Below, piece after piece: positions 411-60,147 of a DNA stretch of 60,842 nt. Numbering within the stretch: position 1 is the stretch's first letter; each line of letters opens with the position of its first letter. The position numbers were made by a program, and so were the translations under genes. Source of the stretch: Cyclobacteriaceae bacterium (lineage in GTDB: Bacteria > Bacteroidota > Bacteroidia > Cytophagales > Cyclobacteriaceae); the NCBI GenBank assembly GCA_025055435.1, contig JANWWN010000013.1, positions 1 to 60,842 on the forward strand, written 5' to 3'. Below the pieces are notes generated by a model. It saw nothing but the letters and a program-made list of their open reading frames with translations, made no database searches and was not told where the DNA came from.

Positions 411-1598
411 TTGCCGGAATACCAGCTTATTTTAATCATTAGTTTAAGTATTGCTGCGGGTGTAATTATTCATAATTACACCCGCAGGCTTGGTATTCCG
501 GCTTTCTTAATTTTTCTGGCAATCGGCTTATTATTTGGCGATGGCCATTGGGGAGAACCTGTTTACGATAATCCGAAATTCACCAGCTTACTCAGTCAGG
601 TTGCCCTGAGTATTATCATTTTCACCGGCGGTTTCAACTCTCCGCTTAACCAAATACGACTGGTATGGAAAGAAGGGATCATGTTGTCAACAGCAGGTGT
701 ACTGCTAACAACGTTCATATTAGGAACTTTTACCCATTTACTTACGGAATTTCCGTTTTCTATTTCCCTACTTTTTGGTGCAATGGTATCTTCGACCGAT
801 GCCGCAGCCGTGTTTAATATTCTGGAATCAGGAAAACTGAAACTCAGACATAATACCGACACCGTTTTGGAGTTTGAAGCTGCCACTAATGACCCGATGG
901 CTCTTATACTCATCTCTGTGCTTATCGAAGTCATTCAGCAAAACCACAGTGAAATAAATTTATTTAACACTGCACTGCGATTTATATCCACTTTAGGATT
1001 GGGGACTATTACAGGCCTTTGCATAGGTTGGATTACAAGAAAAATTCTGATGACCATCGACTTTAAAGAGGCGGCTCTTGTACCTCTATTTATGTTGTCA
1101 TCTTTTCTCACAACCATTTATACCGGCTTACTTACCGGAGGCAATATTCTGGTAGCCGTTTATTTCTATGGTTTAATTACCGGCAACACACGTTTTTCTG
1201 CTTACAACTACACGCGCAATGTAATCGAAAGCACTTCCTGGATGGCTCAGGCTTTCATGTTTTTACTGCTCGGCCTTCAGATTTTTATCGATAGGCTGGC
1301 TGACGGTTTTCTTTTAAGCATCGTACCCGGCTTGTTTCTTATATTTTTCGCACGACCCGCTGCTGTCTTTATATGCTATCTTCCTTTTCGAAAGGAAAAT
1401 CTACAGAAAAAAATTTTCATCAGCGCCGTTGGATTAAAGGGTGCTACGCCCATTGTTTTTGCATTCATGCCATTACTGGCCGGAATCCCATACGCAGAAC
1501 AACTTTTTGATATGGTGTTTTTTATTGTGTTACTTTCCATTTTCATTCAGGGAAGTCTGATTGAATTACTGGCCAGAAAACTAAACCTTACGAACTAA
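411..1598 (+). CDS. Cation/proton antiporter, CPA1/NhaP type
   Basis: 395-residue polytopic inner-membrane protein that should exchange Na+ or K+ for protons. It has about 11-12 hydrophobic segments. The CPA1 core motifs are SSTDAAAVFNIL and EFEAATNDPMAL, the latter carrying the ND pair expected of electroneutral CPA1 antiporters. The start is TTG at 411, 4 bases after the previous stop; no in-frame ATG occurs before residue ~90, which would remove the first membrane segments. NhaP2/CvrA relatives carry a C-terminal cytosolic TrkA_C/CorC regulatory region of about 100-180 residues. It is absent here, so this is a membrane-domain-only form. The ion specificity is not visible. Confidence 0.85.
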   Translation: MPEYQLILIISLSIAAGVIIHNYTRRLGIPAFLIFLAIGLLFGDGHWGEPVYDNPKFTSLLSQVALSIIIFTGGFNSPLNQIRLVWKEGIMLSTAGVLLTTFILGTFTHLLTEFPFSISLLFGAMVSSTDAAAVFNILESGKLKLRHNTDTVLEFEAATNDPMALILISVLIEVIQQNHSEINLFNTALRFISTLGLGTITGLCIGWITRKILMTIDFKEAALVPLFMLSSFLTTIYTGLLTGGNILVAVYFYGLITGNTRFSAYNYTRNVIESTSWMAQAFMFLLLGLQIFIDRLADGFLLSIVPGLFLIFFARPAAVFICYLPFRKENLQKKIFISAVGLKGATPIVFAFMPLLAGIPYAEQLFDMVFFIVLLSIFIQGSLIELLARKLNLTN

Positions 1599-3791: not shown

Positions 3792-4260
3792 CATCTACAC
3801 CGATGGTGCGTCACTGGGAAATCCCGGACCGGGAGGATATGGGGTCATCTTGGAGTATAATAACCACCGTAAAGAACTGAGTGAAGGCTACCGGCTTACC
3901 ACCAACAACCGGATGGAGCTGTTGGCAGTGATTGTCGCACTCGAAGCCCTGAAGAAAGAGGGCATACCGGTAACCGTCTATTCCGATTCGCAGTACGTGG
4001 TCAATGCCATTGAAAAAGGCTGGATATGGCGATGGCAGAAAAAAGGGTTCGCGAAAAAAGCCAATGCCGATTTATGGAGACGATACATCCCCCTGCATGA
4101 AAAATTCAAACCCAAACTGGTGTGGGTAAAAGGTCATGCCGGCCACCCGCAAAATGAACGATGCGATGAACTTTCGGTGAAAGCCGCCAGTGGTAAACAT
4201 TTAAAAATTGACGAAGTTTATGAACAACTAAAAAAGGAAAAAGAAGATTTATTTTCATGA
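3784..4260 (+). CDS. rnhA: Ribonuclease HI
   Basis: 158 residues, normal length for bacterial RNase HI. It cuts the RNA strand of RNA/DNA hybrids. Catalytic residues are all present: D7 (IYTDGA), E45 (NNRMEL), D68 (YSDSQY), H121 and D128 in KGHAGHPQNERCDEL. The basic handle region (WRWQKKGFAKKAN, residues 82-94) is also present. The start codon lies inside the upstream nucleotidyltransferase gene, and the stop overlaps the next start as ATGA. It is therefore embedded in a HEPN-MNT-rnhA-phosphorylase transcript. Confidence 0.95.
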   Translation: MINIYTDGASLGNPGPGGYGVILEYNNHRKELSEGYRLTTNNRMELLAVIVALEALKKEGIPVTVYSDSQYVVNAIEKGWIWRWQKKGFAKKANADLWRRYIPLHEKFKPKLVWVKGHAGHPQNERCDELSVKAASGKHLKIDEVYEQLKKEKEDLFS

Positions 4261-19718: not shown

Positions 19719-19747
19719 AAAAAGTCCCACGCCCAGGGCACGGGACT
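19714..19747 (-). terminator. Rho-independent terminator after the YfiR-YfiR-kinase operon
   Basis: On the minus strand AGTCCC (19747-19742) and GGGACT (19728-19723) form a stem whose inner bases can extend it (GCCC/GGGC), followed at once by TTTTTTATTTT. It lies 39 bases after the histidine kinase stop, and is the clearest terminator in the window besides the one after rplQ. Confidence 0.85.
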
Positions 19748-19785
19748 CTGATAAAAACGCACAGAGTACGCGGAGAAAGACCCTC

Positions 19786-20880
19786 TCACGAAAAACTCCG
19801 CGACCCTGCGCGTGTATCTTCAGTTAATGCTTCTGCATTGCATTTTTGATTTGGCAGGTACACGATGAATTCTGACCCCTGGCCCGGTTCAGACTGCAAT
19901 TCTATTTTTCCATGAAGTCGCTCAACGGTGTCCCGCAAAATAAATAAGCCAAGGCCGGAACCGTGTGCCTGGGTAGTTGCCCGGAAAAACATATCGAATA
20001 TCCTATTTTGGTATTGTTTTTCGATTCCAATGCCGTTATCCTTGACCGACAGCACAGCTTCTTTTTCGGTTACTGATACATTAATCTGTATCAGGTGTTT
20101 CGGCTTACGTGTATCGGCATATTTAATGGCGTTGGTCAACAGGTTGGTGAGAATGGTTTTAACCCGCAATTTATCCGAACAAAAGTCAACCGGCTGATGA
20201 ATGTTTACCTCAATGCGTACTTTGTCCGGATGGTAGGTCATGCGCTGATCGTCCAATTCTTCCTGCACAAGTTCTTCCCACACGATAAGCTGTTGCTGAA
20301 TGGCCATTTTACCGGTTCGGTAAAAGTGATGCATTTCTTCGATGAAGGTATTGAGCTTGTTCAAACTTCTCCGAATCAATGCCAGGTATTCCAGGCGCTG
20401 CGGTTCAGGCGATTGTTCAGCAAGTGTAATTAACCCCAAAGCCGACATGATCGGAGCACGCAAATCGTGGGTGGTTTTATAAATAACCTGATCCAGCTGT
20501 TTATTGGAACTGATGAGTTCCTGGGTTTTCTTTTTGTAAGGGGTTACATTGTGTAATTGCAAAACCTGCCCGCCATCTTCATTATGATGGTTAATACGAT
20601 ATGCAGTTACATCGAAATACGTGATTTCATCCGCAGTCAGCCGCAGGCCAGCTTCGAAAATCTTACGGTCGTTGTTGCCGGCCAGGCACTCCTTCCACAG
20701 TTCAGCTTTCTCTGTTTCAACAAAGTCGAAGATGTTTTTTCCCAGCAGTGAGAGTGGCTCGGCCCCATACCTGCGCACCACGGAAGAAATGTACCGGATT
20801 TTGAAATCCTTATCTACCAGCACATAAATGTCATCGGAGTTTTCAACCAACTCCTTAAAAATCCATTCCATACCCTTCAT
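19786..20880 (-). CDS. PAS-domain sensor histidine kinase (soluble)
   Basis: 364 residues with no membrane segment or signal peptide. Order: PAS domain (~8-115, with NSDDIYVLVDKDFKIRYIS), a short coiled coil, HisKA with phospho-acceptor H138 in THDLRAPIMSALG, and HATPase_c with N box LTNLLTNAIKYAD (~244-256), G1 DNGIGIE (281-287) and G2 HGSGLGLFI (~306-314). All boxes are intact. No response regulator is adjacent, so it is an orphan kinase. It lies 48 bases after the second YfiR gene. A perfect 16-bp inverted repeat brackets its start codon (20832-20905), which suggests control of translation initiation or a mutation hot spot. Confidence 0.9.
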   Translation of the reverse strand: MKGMEWIFKELVENSDDIYVLVDKDFKIRYISSVVRRYGAEPLSLLGKNIFDFVETEKAELWKECLAGNNDRKIFEAGLRLTADEITYFDVTAYRINHHNEDGGQVLQLHNVTPYKKKTQELISSNKQLDQVIYKTTHDLRAPIMSALGLITLAEQSPEPQRLEYLALIRRSLNKLNTFIEEMHHFYRTGKMAIQQQLIVWEELVQEELDDQRMTYHPDKVRIEVNIHQPVDFCSDKLRVKTILTNLLTNAIKYADTRKPKHLIQINVSVTEKEAVLSVKDNGIGIEKQYQNRIFDMFFRATTQAHGSGLGLFILRDTVERLHGKIELQSEPGQGSEFIVYLPNQKCNAEALTEDTRAGSRSFS

Positions 20881-20905
20881 AACTTTTCAGTTGAAAACTC
20901 CGATG
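20832..20905. repeat. Perfect 16-bp inverted repeat bracketing the histidine kinase start
   Basis: CATCGGAGTTTTCAAC at 20832-20847 and its exact reverse complement GTTGAAAACTCCGATG at 20890-20905 are separated by 42 bases that contain the kinase ATG (20878-20880). One arm covers codons 12-17; the other lies 10-25 bases upstream of the ATG. A CATCG at 20912-20916 can pair with the CGATG end of the upstream arm instead, giving a competing small hairpin. Confidence 0.9.
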
Positions 20906-20928
20906 CACTTCCATCGTGGGCCGGACTG

Positions 20929-21438
20929 TCAGATCAGTATGGACATACTGGCCAATTGTCCGGATACCTTTAGGTTAGAGCTGGTAACTGTAGACTGGTT
21001 CAGCTCCCATTTCAGTTTACCGTCAATTATTCTAAAGTTGATGCAACTTCCTTTCTGTCCCAAACCTGTGCCATCGGTTACGGTAAGCACCGGTTTTCCC
21101 GAAATCGCAGCTTTTATGCTATCAAATTCTTTGCTTTTGCTTTTTCCCAGATACACTACGTGGCAAGCCGCGGCCTCATCGGCGGAAGTAAGTTTCTTAA
21201 TCACATACTTTTTCGCACCCTTGGGTTTGCCGTCGTACCAGGCTTTCAGCGTATTGAAGACGTTATCTTCGCCCATTACGCCTACAACAAAATCGCCACC
21301 CGCACCTTCGTCCGGCCATTGTACATACTTAATAAAGTTGAATAACATGGCCGCATAGATTTCGTGTTCGGGACGTTCCTGTGCCCGTGTTATCACGGCA
21401 GCACCGGCAAGCATCAGCAAGAAAACCAGTTTTTTCAT
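20929..21438 (-). CDS. YfiR family (DUF4154) periplasmic protein, copy 2
   Basis: 169 residues with a signal peptide (KLVFLLMLAGAAVITRA). The family core is clear: EIYAAMLFNFIKYVQWP near residue 28, FVVGVMGEDNVF, CHVVYLGKSKS and GSCINFRIIDGKLKWELN. In Pseudomonas, YfiR is a periplasmic regulator that holds down a diguanylate cyclase; members in Bacteroidota are often next to histidine kinases. This copy is closely similar to the upstream copy (same EVYxxMxFNFIKYVQWPD and LxVxGxLxSMxILI ends), so they are tandem duplicates. It lies 26 bases after copy 1 and 48 before the kinase. Confidence 0.88.
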   Translation of the reverse strand: MKKLVFLLMLAGAAVITRAQERPEHEIYAAMLFNFIKYVQWPDEGAGGDFVVGVMGEDNVFNTLKAWYDGKPKGAKKYVIKKLTSADEAAACHVVYLGKSKSKEFDSIKAAISGKPVLTVTDGTGLGQKGSCINFRIIDGKLKWELNQSTVTSSNLKVSGQLASMSILI

Positions 21439-21464: not shown

Positions 21465-21980
21465 TTATATCAGAATTGCCATTGATGTAAGCGACCCGGC
21501 TACTTTCAGGTTAGCTGCCTCAACGGCTTTCTGATTCAATTCAAATTTAAGTTTGTCATCAACAAATCTGAAGTTGATTGCACTGCCCTTTTCGCCCAGT
21601 CCGGCTTTATCAGTAATTACCAGGGTACCTTTCCCTTTTACCTTGGTGTTTACCGCTTCGAACTCGCTGCTCTTTGACTTATCAATAAAAACCACATGAC
21701 AATCGGTTACATCGGCAGCAGAATTGAACTTCTTGATTACATAGGTTTTGTTGCCGCGCGGCTTTCCGCCATACCAGGTACTTAACGTGTTGTACACATC
21801 AGCATTACCGATTACGCCAATAACAAATTCTCCGCCTTCGGAATGGTCGGGCCACTGAACATACTTGATAAAGTTAAACACCATCATCGAATACACTTCG
21901 TGAAGCGGACGGTCCTGGGCCCGGCCGGATAAACTTACCGATACCAACACCACCAAGAGGGCTCTTACGATTCTTTTCAT
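21465..21980 (-). CDS. YfiR family (DUF4154) periplasmic protein, copy 1
   Basis: 171 residues with a signal peptide (RIVRALLVVLVSVSLSGRA). EVYSMMVFNFIKYVQWPDH, FVIGVIGNADVYN, DCHVVFIDKSKSSEF and SAINFRFVDDKLKFELNQK match the YfiR/DUF4154 fold. It is the first gene of a probable three-gene operon with copy 2 and the PAS kinase; a -7 box (22006-22013) and the terminator of the upstream peptidase gene meet just before it. A role as a periplasmic input for the kinase pathway is inference only. Confidence 0.88.
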   Translation of the reverse strand: MKRIVRALLVVLVSVSLSGRAQDRPLHEVYSMMVFNFIKYVQWPDHSEGGEFVIGVIGNADVYNTLSTWYGGKPRGNKTYVIKKFNSAADVTDCHVVFIDKSKSSEFEAVNTKVKGKGTLVITDKAGLGEKGSAINFRFVDDKLKFELNQKAVEAANLKVAGSLTSMAILI

Positions 21981-22005: not shown

Positions 22006-22013
22006 CAAAAGTA
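22006..22013 (-). promoter_or_regulatory. -7 element of the YfiR-YfiR-kinase operon
   Basis: Minus-strand TACTTTTG matches TAnnTTTG exactly, 25 bases upstream of the first YfiR ATG. Its TA overlaps the last two bases of the hairpin at 22012-22041. No TTTG at the -33 position, which falls in the hairpin. Confidence 0.5.
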
Positions 22014-56602: not shown

Positions 56603-56971
56603 ATGGTGAACGACCCGGAGCTGAACGGAAAATATCTTGGCACCATTTCCGGTGACTTCGTAAAAGTAGCCGATAACCTGAAAGAAGCCTCCTATCAGAT
56701 TCGGGTGCGCGGATTTTCAGACCACCCGATTTTTCCGGTTTGCAAAGAAGAACAACCCATCGGACAGTTGCTGATTGACCGCTCGCTGGCCAACACAACC
56801 TGGAATTACTATGCATCGTATCTGGATGAATTTGTTCAGCGCGGACTGATTGATGAAAACAAACAGGAAGAATTTAAAGCCGCCTACAAAAACCCGGATG
56901 AGTACTGTTGTTTGTTTGTAGTGGACAAAGCGTTTACCAATTTTGTTTTCATACCTTACCCGGAAGACTGA
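56603..56971 (+). CDS. Conserved small protein of unknown function, coupled to the propeller kinase
   Basis: 122 residues, no signal peptide or membrane helix, likely cytosolic. Begins MVNDPELNGKYLGTISGDFV and ends FTNFVFIPYPED. A basic/aromatic centre (YQIRVRGFSDHPIFPVCKEE, then SLANTTWNYYASYLDEFVQR) suggests a compact alpha/beta fold. I do not recognise the family. Its TGA stop shares a base with the ATG of the 1058-residue kinase, so their translation is probably linked. Confidence 0.7.
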   Translation: MVNDPELNGKYLGTISGDFVKVADNLKEASYQIRVRGFSDHPIFPVCKEEQPIGQLLIDRSLANTTWNYYASYLDEFVQRGLIDENKQEEFKAAYKNPDEYCCLFVVDKAFTNFVFIPYPED

Positions 56972-59900
56972 TGCGGTGGCTGGCGTTATTAGGGCTTACT
57001 CTCCTCACGCTGCAAACCCCTGGGCAGGACTCCAGCCGCGAACCTGCCTTTGAACACATTGTTCCTCCCGGAACCATTCGCTCTGCCGAAATCAATGACA
57101 TCGTTCAGGATAAAAAAGGATTAATCTGGATAGCAGCCAATGGCTTATTTAGCTACGATGGCCACCGTTTTCTACACTATACCAGCCTGGCCGATTCCGG
57201 TTCCATCCTTAATCAGGAGGTTACATGCCTCCTCTACGATTCCCTTCGAAACCGCATCCTGATCGGCACACGTAATCTTGGCGTAGTGGTATATGACTAC
57301 GAGACCAATAAGCTAAGAAAACTACCCGCAAAAGATGGTACTCCGATTATTAACCACATGGTTGCAGACGCAAATGGTACCATCTGGATTGCCTCCTTTA
57401 ACAGCGGATTATTCTTTCTGAAGGAAGACACCCTGCGACGGGCCCGTGTAAAAAATTATAAAAGCATTCGGACCTCCTTTTTACTGCCGGATATAAACAG
57501 AATATTCATTGGCGACCAGCGAAAAATTTTTTTGATGGAAAATCAACAAATTACCGACTCCATCCTCCTACGATGGAACAACATTGATTTCTCAGCGCAC
57601 GGCCGGGTAATATCCATGTATAAGGACAGAAAGGGCAAATTATATGTAGGCACTGAAAAACTGGGTGTACTTGTTTACGACTTCAGCGAAAAAAAATTTG
57701 TTCAACACTTCAGTCCCGAAAAGCCACCTTTCTTTAACCGCATAAACCGCATTTACGAAGACCGAAGCGGCTTAATCTGGATGCTTACCAAAGCCGGCGG
57801 AATTGTTTTGTATAATCCTCAAACCCAGGAAATAAAAAACCTTACCCGAAATCCTTTACTTCCTTTTACACTGAGTGGCGACAACTGCAACGCCATTTTG
57901 GAAGACCGGTCGGGCATCATCTGGATCGCATCCACCGGCGCATTGAATAAATACGACAAATCCAAAATTCTTTTTCGCCACATTACCTACGACCCTAACA
58001 ATCCGAACTCTTTATCTGATAAAATGGTGCGTTGCGTGTACGAGGAACCGGACGGCACCCTGATTATCGGAACGGATGGAGGCTATCTGAATTTCATTGA
58101 ACCGAATTACGAAAAAATCAGGCGATTGAAAGTTAGGGTGCCCGGTTATTCGCTCAACTTCATGCCGGCATGTATCGAACCATGGGATGAATACAGATTG
58201 CTCATTGGCACGGCATCGGGAATACTGGTATTCAATAAAAGACAACAACGTTTTAGCACTTTACCGGGGTTAAATAAAGGCCTCCAACGGGTTTTGGTCC
58301 GGCAAATTCTATTTAGAAACAACCAGCTTTATCTGGTTGCCGGCGGCTCCTTCAGGATTATTGACCTGAGTACATCCACAGAAAAGATATATAAAAACTT
58401 TGACGATGATACGGATGAAAACCCGGTGTTTGGCGCAACAACCCTGTACGAAGATTCGCATAAACGTATTTGGATTGGTGTGCAGGGCGGAATATCACTT
58501 TTCAATCCCGACTCAACCTTTACTTTTTTCCCGGTCGAAAAACAATCACGCCGGCCCGATGGGTCCTACTTTATGGTTCTGGCTCTTCAGGAAATCAATG
58601 GTTACCTATGGATCAGCACCTTCAACAATGGTATATGGAAATTACGGCTCTCCAAACAAAATCAGGAAAAGGAACAAATCGAGCGTGTTCATATTCCCGA
58701 ACTGAATAACAACACCATCTACTGTACACTACCTGATTCGGAGGGAATGATCTGGATGACTTCCAATCAGGGCTTACTTAAATACAATCCATCTACCGGC
58801 CACCTCATGACTTTTCTACCCGAGCAGGGCGTTCAGGCACTGGAATTCAACAGGCTTGCATTTTTAAAATCGAAAAGCGGCGCATTTGTTATGGGTGGCA
58901 TCAACGGCATCAACATATTTCATCCCGAACACATCCTGACCAGGGTACACTTACCAAAACCTGTTTTATTGTTTGCAACGGGCAACAAAATGTCTGATAT
59001 ACAGTTTTATCTGAATTTGCGCGAAAAAAGTGAAATTGAATTGTCCCGGAAGCAGAATTTCATCACCTTTCATTATATAGTCAACGACTTCCGGACTCCG
59101 CGGAATTATGTTGTGGAATACCGCCTCGAAGGCCACGATCCTGACTGGATTGAAGCAACCTCAACTGAAATTTCCTATCCAAATCTGCAGCCCGGTAATT
59201 ACCGATTACGGTTACGCACCCGTGTGAATGATGTAACCAACGAAGCATCCATACTAAACATTCAAATGTATCCGCCCTTCTGGCAGCGAAGGTGGTTTAT
59301 CATAACCGGGTTCCTCGTGTTTATAGCCTTGATTCTTGGCGCTTTTCGCATTCAGGCGGAAATCAGTAAGCGAAACAAAGCCCGACTCGAACAACTGCTG
59401 CGCGAACGAACAGCCGAAATTGAGCAATCGCGTGCCGAACTGCAGGCTCTAAACGAAAAAAAAGATCTTATTTTCTCCATCCTATCCCATGATTTGCGAT
59501 CACCCCTCACTACCTTGAAAGGCTTCCTGACACTGATTGAAGAAAATGCGAACGTGCTCACCCCGGAGCAACTTTCGCAGTATGCGCAAAACATCCGAAA
59601 TTCCGTAAGCAGCGCACTCGATTTAGTGGATAACACCTTGTACTGGGCTTTATCCCAAACCGGAAGCATAAAGCGCAACCCGGCTTATTTTTCCATCGGT
59701 GAACTGATCAAAAAAATTTACAACCTCTATCAGCTTACCGCTTCGCGCAAGCGCGTAAATTTCAGGGTTGAAAACTTCGATGATATTCCGGTTTTTGCCG
59801 ATGAAAACATGGCCTATGTGGCGCTGCGCAATGTGGTTTCGAACGCCATCAAATTCACGCCGGAAGGCAAATCGGTGACCGTAAACGTGAGCCAAAACCA

Positions 59901-60147
59901 TCAACAGGCCGTAATAACCGTAAAAGATGAGGGGATTGGTATGAGCCGGGAATATGTGGATCGCGTGCTGAATCAGCAAAACGTGGCAATTAAAAAAGGT
60001 ACTGCCAATGAAAAGGGAACCGGCCTGGGCCTGATACTGTGCCGCAAGTTTATTGAACTGAATAACGGTTCGCTGGAAATTATCAGCGCGGAAAATCAGG
60101 GAACGGAATTCCGGATTTACCTGCCGCTTTATGAAGAACGAAAATGA
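56971..60147 (+). CDS. Two-component propeller (Reg_prop/Y_Y_Y) sensor histidine kinase
   Basis: 1058 residues from ATG 56971 (a frame open further up overlaps the small gene and is not used). Signal peptide LALLGLTLLTLQTPG; then about 10-14 Reg_prop repeats forming periplasmic propellers (INDIVQDKKGLIWIAANGLF, HMVADANGTIWIASFNSGLF, INRIYEDRSGLIWMLTKAGG, ILEDRSGIIWIASTGALNKY). A Y_Y_Y domain is near ~700-765 (FHYIVNDFRTPRNYVVEYRL), a membrane helix at ~774-794, then a coiled coil, HisKA with H840 in ILSHDLRSPLTTLKG, and HATPase_c (RNVVSNAIKFTPEGK, DEGIGM, GTGLGLIL). There is no receiver or AraC domain, unlike the hybrid sensors of Bacteroides. It probably senses an extracellular ligand. Overlaps thiL by 19 bases. 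Confidence 0.92.
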   Translation: MRWLALLGLTLLTLQTPGQDSSREPAFEHIVPPGTIRSAEINDIVQDKKGLIWIAANGLFSYDGHRFLHYTSLADSGSILNQEVTCLLYDSLRNRILIGTRNLGVVVYDYETNKLRKLPAKDGTPIINHMVADANGTIWIASFNSGLFFLKEDTLRRARVKNYKSIRTSFLLPDINRIFIGDQRKIFLMENQQITDSILLRWNNIDFSAHGRVISMYKDRKGKLYVGTEKLGVLVYDFSEKKFVQHFSPEKPPFFNRINRIYEDRSGLIWMLTKAGGIVLYNPQTQEIKNLTRNPLLPFTLSGDNCNAILEDRSGIIWIASTGALNKYDKSKILFRHITYDPNNPNSLSDKMVRCVYEEPDGTLIIGTDGGYLNFIEPNYEKIRRLKVRVPGYSLNFMPACIEPWDEYRLLIGTASGILVFNKRQQRFSTLPGLNKGLQRVLVRQILFRNNQLYLVAGGSFRIIDLSTSTEKIYKNFDDDTDENPVFGATTLYEDSHKRIWIGVQGGISLFNPDSTFTFFPVEKQSRRPDGSYFMVLALQEINGYLWISTFNNGIWKLRLSKQNQEKEQIERVHIPELNNNTIYCTLPDSEGMIWMTSNQGLLKYNPSTGHLMTFLPEQGVQALEFNRLAFLKSKSGAFVMGGINGINIFHPEHILTRVHLPKPVLLFATGNKMSDIQFYLNLREKSEIELSRKQNFITFHYIVNDFRTPRNYVVEYRLEGHDPDWIEATSTEISYPNLQPGNYRLRLRTRVNDVTNEASILNIQMYPPFWQRRWFIITGFLVFIALILGAFRIQAEISKRNKARLEQLLRERTAEIEQSRAELQALNEKKDLIFSILSHDLRSPLTTLKGFLTLIEENANVLTPEQLSQYAQNIRNSVSSALDLVDNTLYWALSQTGSIKRNPAYFSIGELIKKIYNLYQLTASRKRVNFRVENFDDIPVFADENMAYVALRNVVSNAIKFTPEGKSVTVNVSQNHQQAVITVKDEGIGMSREYVDRVLNQQNVAIKKGTANEKGTGLGLILCRKFIELNNGSLEIISAENQGTEFRIYLPLYEERK

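What the first reader, a model, noticed from the sequence alone, without database searches (positions are those of the whole stretch)
20832..20905. Perfect 16-bp inverted repeat with the kinase start codon in its loop
CATCGGAGTTTTCAAC (20832-20847) and its exact reverse complement (20890-20905) flank 42 bases containing the ATG of the PAS histidine kinase. A 16-base perfect match this close is not expected by chance. In the mRNA it would close a long stem with the start codon in the loop. A CATCG at 20912-20916 offers a competing pairing for the upstream arm, like a switch. At the DNA level the same layout would let inversion of the 42-bp loop remove the start codon (an on/off phase switch), or it may record a template-switch mutation.
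Basis: partly seen in the sequence, partly recalled or inferred. Interest (0 to 1): 0.7.

Follow-up and report, generated by a model that had tools for sequence, protein, structure and literature searches.

The report
Conserved RNA hairpin around kinase start
The inverted repeat is real and, because a distant relative keeps the same base pairing while its letters change, it is most likely an RNA hairpin that controls how a sensor kinase gene is translated, not a DNA flip switch.

Summary
CATCGGAGTTTTCAAC (20832-20847) and its exact complement (20890-20905) flank 42 bases holding both candidate start codons (20880, 20871) of a minus-strand PAS histidine kinase. About 0.002 such repeats are expected in the window. 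As RNA it forms a 24-bp helix with one bulged A.

It is not a recent neutral accident. The nearest relative found (G013, 68% protein identity; fourfold sites 168 of 377 identical) has the same helix and bulge. Its five leader-arm differences and one coding-arm difference all keep pairing; random changes do so in 23 of 200,000 trials. The coding arm lies in a run of 12 codons with identical third bases. None of the 25 other orthologs tested shows comparable pairing. G005 has the coding arm without the leader arm, so the leader arm is probably the new part.

Best reading: a lineage-specific cis-acting RNA hairpin that gates translation of the kinase behind two YfiR-like genes. Direction of the effect is inferred. 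The inversion switch has no support; a template switch may explain the origin.

By-product: a covarying 18-bp RNA hairpin across the kinase 3' end, strong in 37 of 390 family genomes, without a Rfam match.

The parts
20887..20910 (-). leader arm of the RNA helix (24 nt), containing the 16-nt perfect arm 20890-20905, between the stop of the upstream YfiR-like gene and the kinase start
20826..20850 (-). coding arm of the helix (24 paired nt plus bulged A at 20831), containing the 16-nt perfect arm 20832-20847; codons for LVENSDDI
20851..20886 (-). 36-nt loop of the 24-bp helix with both candidate start codons (ATG 20880-20878 and ATG 20871-20869; the latter aligns with the only ATG of G013)
20912..20916 (-). 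CGATG in the mRNA, able to pair with CATCG of the leader arm (5-pair competing helix)
   Evidence: kept with one G.U in G013
19786..20880 (-). PAS - HisKA - HATPase_c histidine kinase, 364 aa
   Evidence: HATPase_c above its cut-off; HisKA and PAS just below theirs
20929..21438 (-). YfiR/HmsC-like (DUF4154) gene directly upstream of the kinase
21465..21980 (-). second YfiR/HmsC-like (DUF4154) gene, first of the presumed operon
22006..22013 (-). TACTTTTG, resembling the Bacteroidota promoter motif TAnnTTTG (motif recalled, from no call); identical in G013
   Evidence: sequence
19751..19818 (-). E1: 18-bp RNA hairpin with conserved loop over the kinase stop codon, followed by a T run; side discovery
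19721..19749 (-). terminator-like hairpin after E1

Best explanation
The inverted repeat is the footprint of an RNA hairpin in the mRNA of a yfiR-yfiR-kinase operon. The intergenic leader pairs over 24 bp with kinase codons 11-18, leaving the start codon(s) in a 36-nt loop (42 nt in G013). Shown by sequence comparison: the helix is kept in two genomes whose neutral sites are saturated, with differences that preserve pairing. Inferred: it acts in cis on translation, holding the region 30S subunits need in a stable stem, so the kinase is made at a lower or gated rate than the YfiR-like proteins translated from the same message. The leader arm probably arose in the common ancestor of the two genomes as an inverted copy of the coding arm (template switch) and was then kept by selection.
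For: Same 24-bp helix and same bulged A in G013. 5 leader-arm differences and 1 coding-arm difference, all pair-preserving: one C-G to U-A double change and four G.U/A-U swaps; random placement of 5 changes keeps all pairs in 23 of 200,000 trials. Leader identity 38 of 44 aligned bases where fourfold sites are 168 of 377 identical. Longest run of identical third bases in the kinase, 12 codons (10-21), covers the coding arm; 63 of 10,000 shuffles reach 12. Leader x coding pairing beats 200 of 200 leader shuffles in the window and in G013, in none of the other 25 orthologs. In the first 50 kb of G013's contig only 2 perfect repeats of at least 12 bp occur and this is one. Four of the changes are G.U-type, which would be mismatches in DNA. 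Start-region structure lowers translation in Bacteroidetes: -5.2 kcal/mol gave about one fifth in Prevotella bryantii (PMC3155529, passages); structure tunes initiation in Flavobacterium johnsoniae (PMC6847099, passages).
Against: Only two genomes carry it, so covariation rests on one double change; the pair-shuffle control on two rows is uninformative (274 of 500), and the 24-bp helix was delimited after seeing both sequences. The whole 48 nt before start 20871, loop included, is only 7th of 15 in identity among upstream stretches free of my listed ORFs (four or more above it are in the ribosomal-protein operon and may hold short genes). If the start is 20871 (the one shared with G013), the leader arm ends at -16 (at -22 in G013); in Prevotella a hairpin placed at -21 did not inhibit (PMC3155529), so repression could be weak. 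The double change could also come from arm homogenisation by template switching (PMC8604942, passages). No expression data.
Confidence: 0.6

Rival explanations
1. Neutral relic: a template-switch (quasipalindrome) mutation copied the coding arm into the leader and it has no function.
For: G005 has the coding arm (GTTGAAAACTCCGG) but no leader arm, so the leader arm looks like an inverted copy. Template switching makes and homogenises inverted repeats (PMC8604942, passages).
Against: The helix outlasted saturation of fourfold sites (168 of 377 identical), with leader identity 38 of 44 and pair-preserving changes. In PMC8604942 repeats that underwent template switching had shorter spacers than others; here it is 36-42 nt.
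Confidence: 0.12
2. The stem frames rather than blocks initiation: it keeps a ribosome-sized loop open around the start and puts a barrier downstream of it (START-like), helping start selection in a phylum that lacks Shine-Dalgarno pairing.
For: With start 20871 the coding arm begins at +22 in both genomes and the loop is 36-42 nt. START proposes stable structures downstream of about +16 (PMC7664666, abstract).
Against: G013 folds further inside the loop. The proposal as seen concerns structures within the coding sequence, not a stem joining leader and coding sequence. None of the 25 other orthologs tested shows comparable pairing.
Confidence: 0.13
3. mRNA processing or stability element: the duplex is cut by a double-strand ribonuclease such as RNase III, or protects the upstream yfiR message.
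For: A 24-bp near-perfect duplex lies between two genes of one message; L004, L005 and L006 have unrelated short hairpins near the same junction by eye.
Against: Cutting would separate the kinase start from its gene. No RNA ends known. Junction-wide folds of L005 and L006 are not exceptional (z -1.22 and 0.10; L004 -2.23).
Confidence: 0.1
4. Invertible DNA switch: recombination at the arms flips the 42-bp loop and removes the start codon.
For: Arms of 16 bp lie in the 10-40 nt range given for invertons (PMC11892184, passages); the flip removes both ATGs.
Against: No recombinase among the window's neighbouring genes examined; 3 tyrosine recombinases in the genome, none on this contig. In G013 the arms are no longer identical as DNA but still pair as RNA. 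Both genomes show the coding orientation.
Confidence: 0.02
5. DNA-level operator: the arms are two half-sites of a transcription regulator.
For: Symmetric 16-bp sites, kept in a relative.
Against: No promoter-like site found at the arms (sigma-70 type only); changes are G.U-type one-sided, and 36-42 nt between arms varies by 6 nt between genomes.
Confidence: 0.03

Closest known systems
Translation-initiation-region hairpins that tune expression in Bacteroidota (PMC3155529, PMC6847099; passages seen)
   Same: stable secondary structure at the ribosome entry region of an mRNA in a phylum without Shine-Dalgarno pairing
   Different: the stem here is much longer (24 bp) than the -5.2 and -11.1 kcal/mol test structures, joins leader to coding sequence, and is conserved in one relative
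Coding-sequence elements complementary to the leader, such as the internal complementary sequence of E. coli gnd (recalled; the search gave no reading of it)
   Same: codons of the gene pair with its own leader to limit initiation
   Different: here the coding arm is at codons 11-18 and the duplex is longer; no regulation shown
Quasipalindrome template-switch mutations (PMC8604942; passages seen)
   Same: one arm looks like an inverted copy of the other made in one step
   Different: kept over saturating divergence, with a long spacer
Invertons (PMC11892184; passages seen)
   Same: short inverted repeats at a gene start
   Different: very short invertible segment, no local recombinase found, arms diverge as DNA in the relative

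Membership tests
cis-acting translation-initiation hairpin | stable helix overlapping or closing the start region | tested here: met
   (z -3.06, -3.49; 0 of 200 shuffles each)
cis-acting translation-initiation hairpin | helix conserved with pair-preserving changes | tested here: met
   two genomes only
cis-acting translation-initiation hairpin | translation depends on the helix | not testable with these tools
   needs reporters and probing
inverton (invertible DNA) | both orientations occur | not testable with these tools
   no reads; two assemblies both in coding orientation
inverton (invertible DNA) | dedicated recombinase nearby | tested here: not met
   3 PF00589 matches in the genome, none on the window contig; serine recombinases not searched
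known riboswitch, thermometer or leader family | match to an Rfam model | tested here: not met
   no match at gathering score; best E 0.74 in the region, below threshold
intrinsic terminator | G+C-rich short-loop stem followed by a T run | tested here: not met
   one search lists no terminator-like site at 20826-20910
template-switch (quasipalindrome) mutation | ancestral state with only one arm | tested here: met
   G005 (L004) has the coding arm, not the leader arm; polarity inferred, no tree built

The most novel reading that the evidence does not exclude
The kinase mRNA is bracketed by two RNA elements that speak to each other: E1 at its 3' end (a new structured RNA) carries CGGAGUUUU, the same nine letters as the leader arm, so E1 or a small RNA made from it could compete with the leader arm for the same kinase codons and thereby set kinase synthesis.
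Probability: 0.05. Interest if true: 0.7.

Novelty: new member of a known kind. Interest (0 to 1): 0.42.

Why it matters
It gives a datable case in which a probable one-step inverted copy became a conserved regulatory hairpin at a start codon, in a phylum that initiates translation without Shine-Dalgarno pairing. Synonymous changes in the coding arm make it directly testable. The side discovery, E1, is a covarying structured RNA without an Rfam match, in at least 8 genera of one family, and may matter more than the repeat itself.

Tried and rejected
Considered and set aside: a conserved leader peptide (the short ATGGAA... frame differs between the two genomes because of a 1-nt indel; by eye). 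A general leader-VENS pairing across the family, suggested by eye for L034-L036: one search does not support it (8 of 200 shuffles for L036, 40 for L035, 46 for L034). Search for further copies of the hairpin: the exact pattern found only the window (its 50-nt gap limit excludes G013); the covariance model R2 found strong matches only in the window and G013 (each also weakly on the opposite strand of the same place) and three weak ones at the orthologous kinase starts (E 0.049, 0.108, 0.68). Arm-like sequences elsewhere in the window: 7 matches with up to 3 mismatches against 0.71 expected, five besides the repeat itself, the best in codons of another kinase; not explained. E1 against the kinase codons: matched genomes pair a little better than permuted ones (149 of 5,000), weak and confounded by kinship. 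E1 beyond the family: 4 genomes of family f11 (E 1.4e-7 to 6.9e-4) lack the conserved loop, so I do not count them.

Rows dropped: of the 29 ortholog genomes, one search tested 27 (L041 left out as having the same leader as L040, L053 because its match starts at residue 104 after an N run); the 17 loci have leaders already among these (compared by eye). The G014 row was cut from the wrong place and is not used. One search used 25 of the 30 E1 loci L087-L116.

Full report
OBSERVATION. The gene it flanks is read from the minus strand: a PAS-HisKA-HATPase_c kinase, 19786-20880. The arm at 20890-20905 is leader (intergenic) and the arm at 20832-20847 is coding (GTT GAA AAC TCC GAT G, from VENSDD). 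Two in-frame ATGs, 20880 and 20871, lie between them. Two perfect repeats of at least 16 bp occur in the window against 0.0021 expected and 0 in each of 100 resamples; at 12 bp the window is unexceptional. In 440,842 bases of the genome it is the only one of 7 repeats of at least 14 bp with a spacer above 12 nt.

ANATOMY. Upstream lie two YfiR/HmsC-like (DUF4154) genes, 21980-21465 and 21438-20929; the second ends 48 nt before the kinase ATG at 20880. A TACTTTTG motif before the first gene (22013-22006) is kept in G013; that it is a promoter is recalled knowledge of the phylum. As RNA the leader and codons 11-18 form 24 pairs with one bulged A. Relative to ATG 20880 the leader arm covers -30 to -7 and the coding arm +31 to +55; relative to ATG 20871 they cover -39 to -16 and +22 to +46. 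The second ATG aligns with G013's ATG, the first with the starts of L004 and L005, so the true start is open; both are in the loop.

CONSERVATION. Orthologs (E <= 1e-75) occur in 29 of 390 family genomes, the window's own included. Between the two, fourfold sites in four neighbouring genes are 168 of 377 identical, so neutral sites are saturated, yet the leader from the yfiR stop to the end of the arm is 38 of 44 identical. The coding arm lies in a 12-codon run with identical third bases, the longest in the kinase (63 of 10,000 shuffles reach it). All 24 pairs are kept: 19 unchanged, 4 changed on one side, 1 on both. Random placement of five leader changes, with the transition fraction seen at fourfold sites (73 of 209), keeps all pairs in 23 of 200,000 trials; the helix limits were chosen after seeing both sequences, so read this as strong but not exact. 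G013 folds at z -4.28 with 0 of 200 shuffles as stable.

LIMITS OF THE CONSERVATION. Of 27 orthologs tested, leader-coding pairing beats 200 of 200 leader shuffles in 2 (window and G013); the next best is L036 with 8 of 200 shuffles as good, then L044 with 34. G005 has the same coding-arm codons but no leader arm, so the leader arm was probably gained in the ancestor of G000 and G013 (no tree was built). As a control, the 48 nt before start 20871 compared with other upstream stretches of the syntenic 48 kb is only 7th of 15 stretches that overlap none of my listed ORFs (39 of 48; range 27-47); this stretch includes the unconserved loop, and several stretches above it lie in the ribosomal-protein operon where genes under 90 aa were not listed. 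With two rows the shuffle control is uninformative (274 of 500).

MECHANISM. Shown: the sequence, the predicted fold, its persistence. Inferred: that it forms in the cell and gates initiation. In Prevotella bryantii a -5.2 kcal/mol start-region structure cut the protein to about one fifth, while a hairpin at -21 did no harm (PMC3155529, passages); in Flavobacterium johnsoniae structure near the start tunes initiation (PMC6847099, passages). With start 20880 the stem enters the critical region; with start 20871 it frames it, which leaves the START-like rival alive (PMC7664666, abstract). The CATCG competitor gives only 5 pairs and could matter at most during transcription.

DNA-LEVEL READINGS. 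A flip of the 42-bp loop would remove both ATGs and leave GTG 20823, but both known copies are in coding orientation, the G013 arms match over 13 bp only as DNA (by eye; one search finds it at 12 but not at 14) while still pairing as RNA, and of 3 tyrosine recombinases in the genome none is on this contig. A template switch is a good account of the origin; such events also homogenise arms (PMC8604942, passages), so the one double change is not proof of RNA selection by itself.

SIDE DISCOVERY, E1. The second longest run of identical third bases in the kinase is its last 11 codons. They overlap a hairpin (19818-19751) of 18 pairs with a long conserved loop (GAGAGGGUCUUU), followed by a T run and a second terminator-like hairpin. 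It is found in 14 of 17 genus genomes by DNA similarity. A covariance model from 13 of these finds E1 in 42 of 390 family genomes at E <= 0.01: 37 strong (E <= 2.6e-11; 8 genera; the 13 model members match by construction) and 5 weak (E 4e-4 to 0.009). Eleven of the 37, all in genera g16 and g105, have two copies about 100 nt apart. On 25 sequences (23 distinct) 97.8% of cells pair, 9 of 18 pairs change on both sides (27 cells), 0 of 500 shuffles reach these; on the first 13 sequences support was thinner (3 pairs; further pair types 500 of 500). No Rfam match. In 30 of 30 fetched loci it sits beside at least one gene of this neighbourhood (M42 peptidase, yfiR-like, kinase, Peripla_BP_2, aroA); the Peripla_BP_2 gene was not matched within the fetched flanks in 6 of 30, the yfiR-like gene in 2 of 30. 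Whether it is a terminator, a small RNA or a leader of the next gene is open.

VERDICT. A real, selected, lineage-specific start-region RNA hairpin: an ordinary kind of regulator in an unusually clear form. The inversion idea is rejected on present evidence, and the neutral template-switch idea survives only as an origin.

Noticed in passing
window 19751-19818 (-); loci L072-L085, L087-L116: E1: an 18-bp covarying RNA hairpin with a conserved loop over the kinase 3' end; strong in 37 of 390 family genomes, doubled in 11 of them, present also in genus genomes without this kinase; no Rfam match.
   Followed up: yes
L084 and L085 (G010, G012), upstream of E1: Where the yfiR and kinase genes are missing, E1 is preceded by TACTTTTG / TACATTTG promoter-like motifs (recalled motif) and followed by a terminator-like hairpin and the Peripla_BP_2 gene, as an independent transcript or riboswitch-like leader would be.
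   Followed up: partly
window 413-502 (+): The only other repeat of at least 16 bp in the window (454-469/472-487, with outer 12-bp arms 413-424/491-502) is a large hairpin in the first 30 codons of an antiporter-like gene (411-1598); fold z -6.81. The best genus matches are only 36-39% identical.
   Followed up: partly
L004 (G005), yfiR stop region: A 12-bp perfect palindrome TCTATACTCATC-T-GATGAGTATAGA spans the yfiR stop codon just before the kinase; L005 and L006 have other short hairpins at this junction (by eye).
   Followed up: no
window 59767-59782 (-): A one-mismatch copy of the repeat arm (CATCGAAGTTTTCAAC) lies in codons VENFDDI of another histidine kinase gene (56908-60147); 7 arm-like matches against 0.71 expected in the window.
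   Followed up: no
window 19721-19749 (-) and L056 near 4135-4160: The second hairpin after E1 has turned over in letters between window and G013 while staying a hairpin with a T run, as expected of a plain terminator and unlike E1.
   Followed up: no
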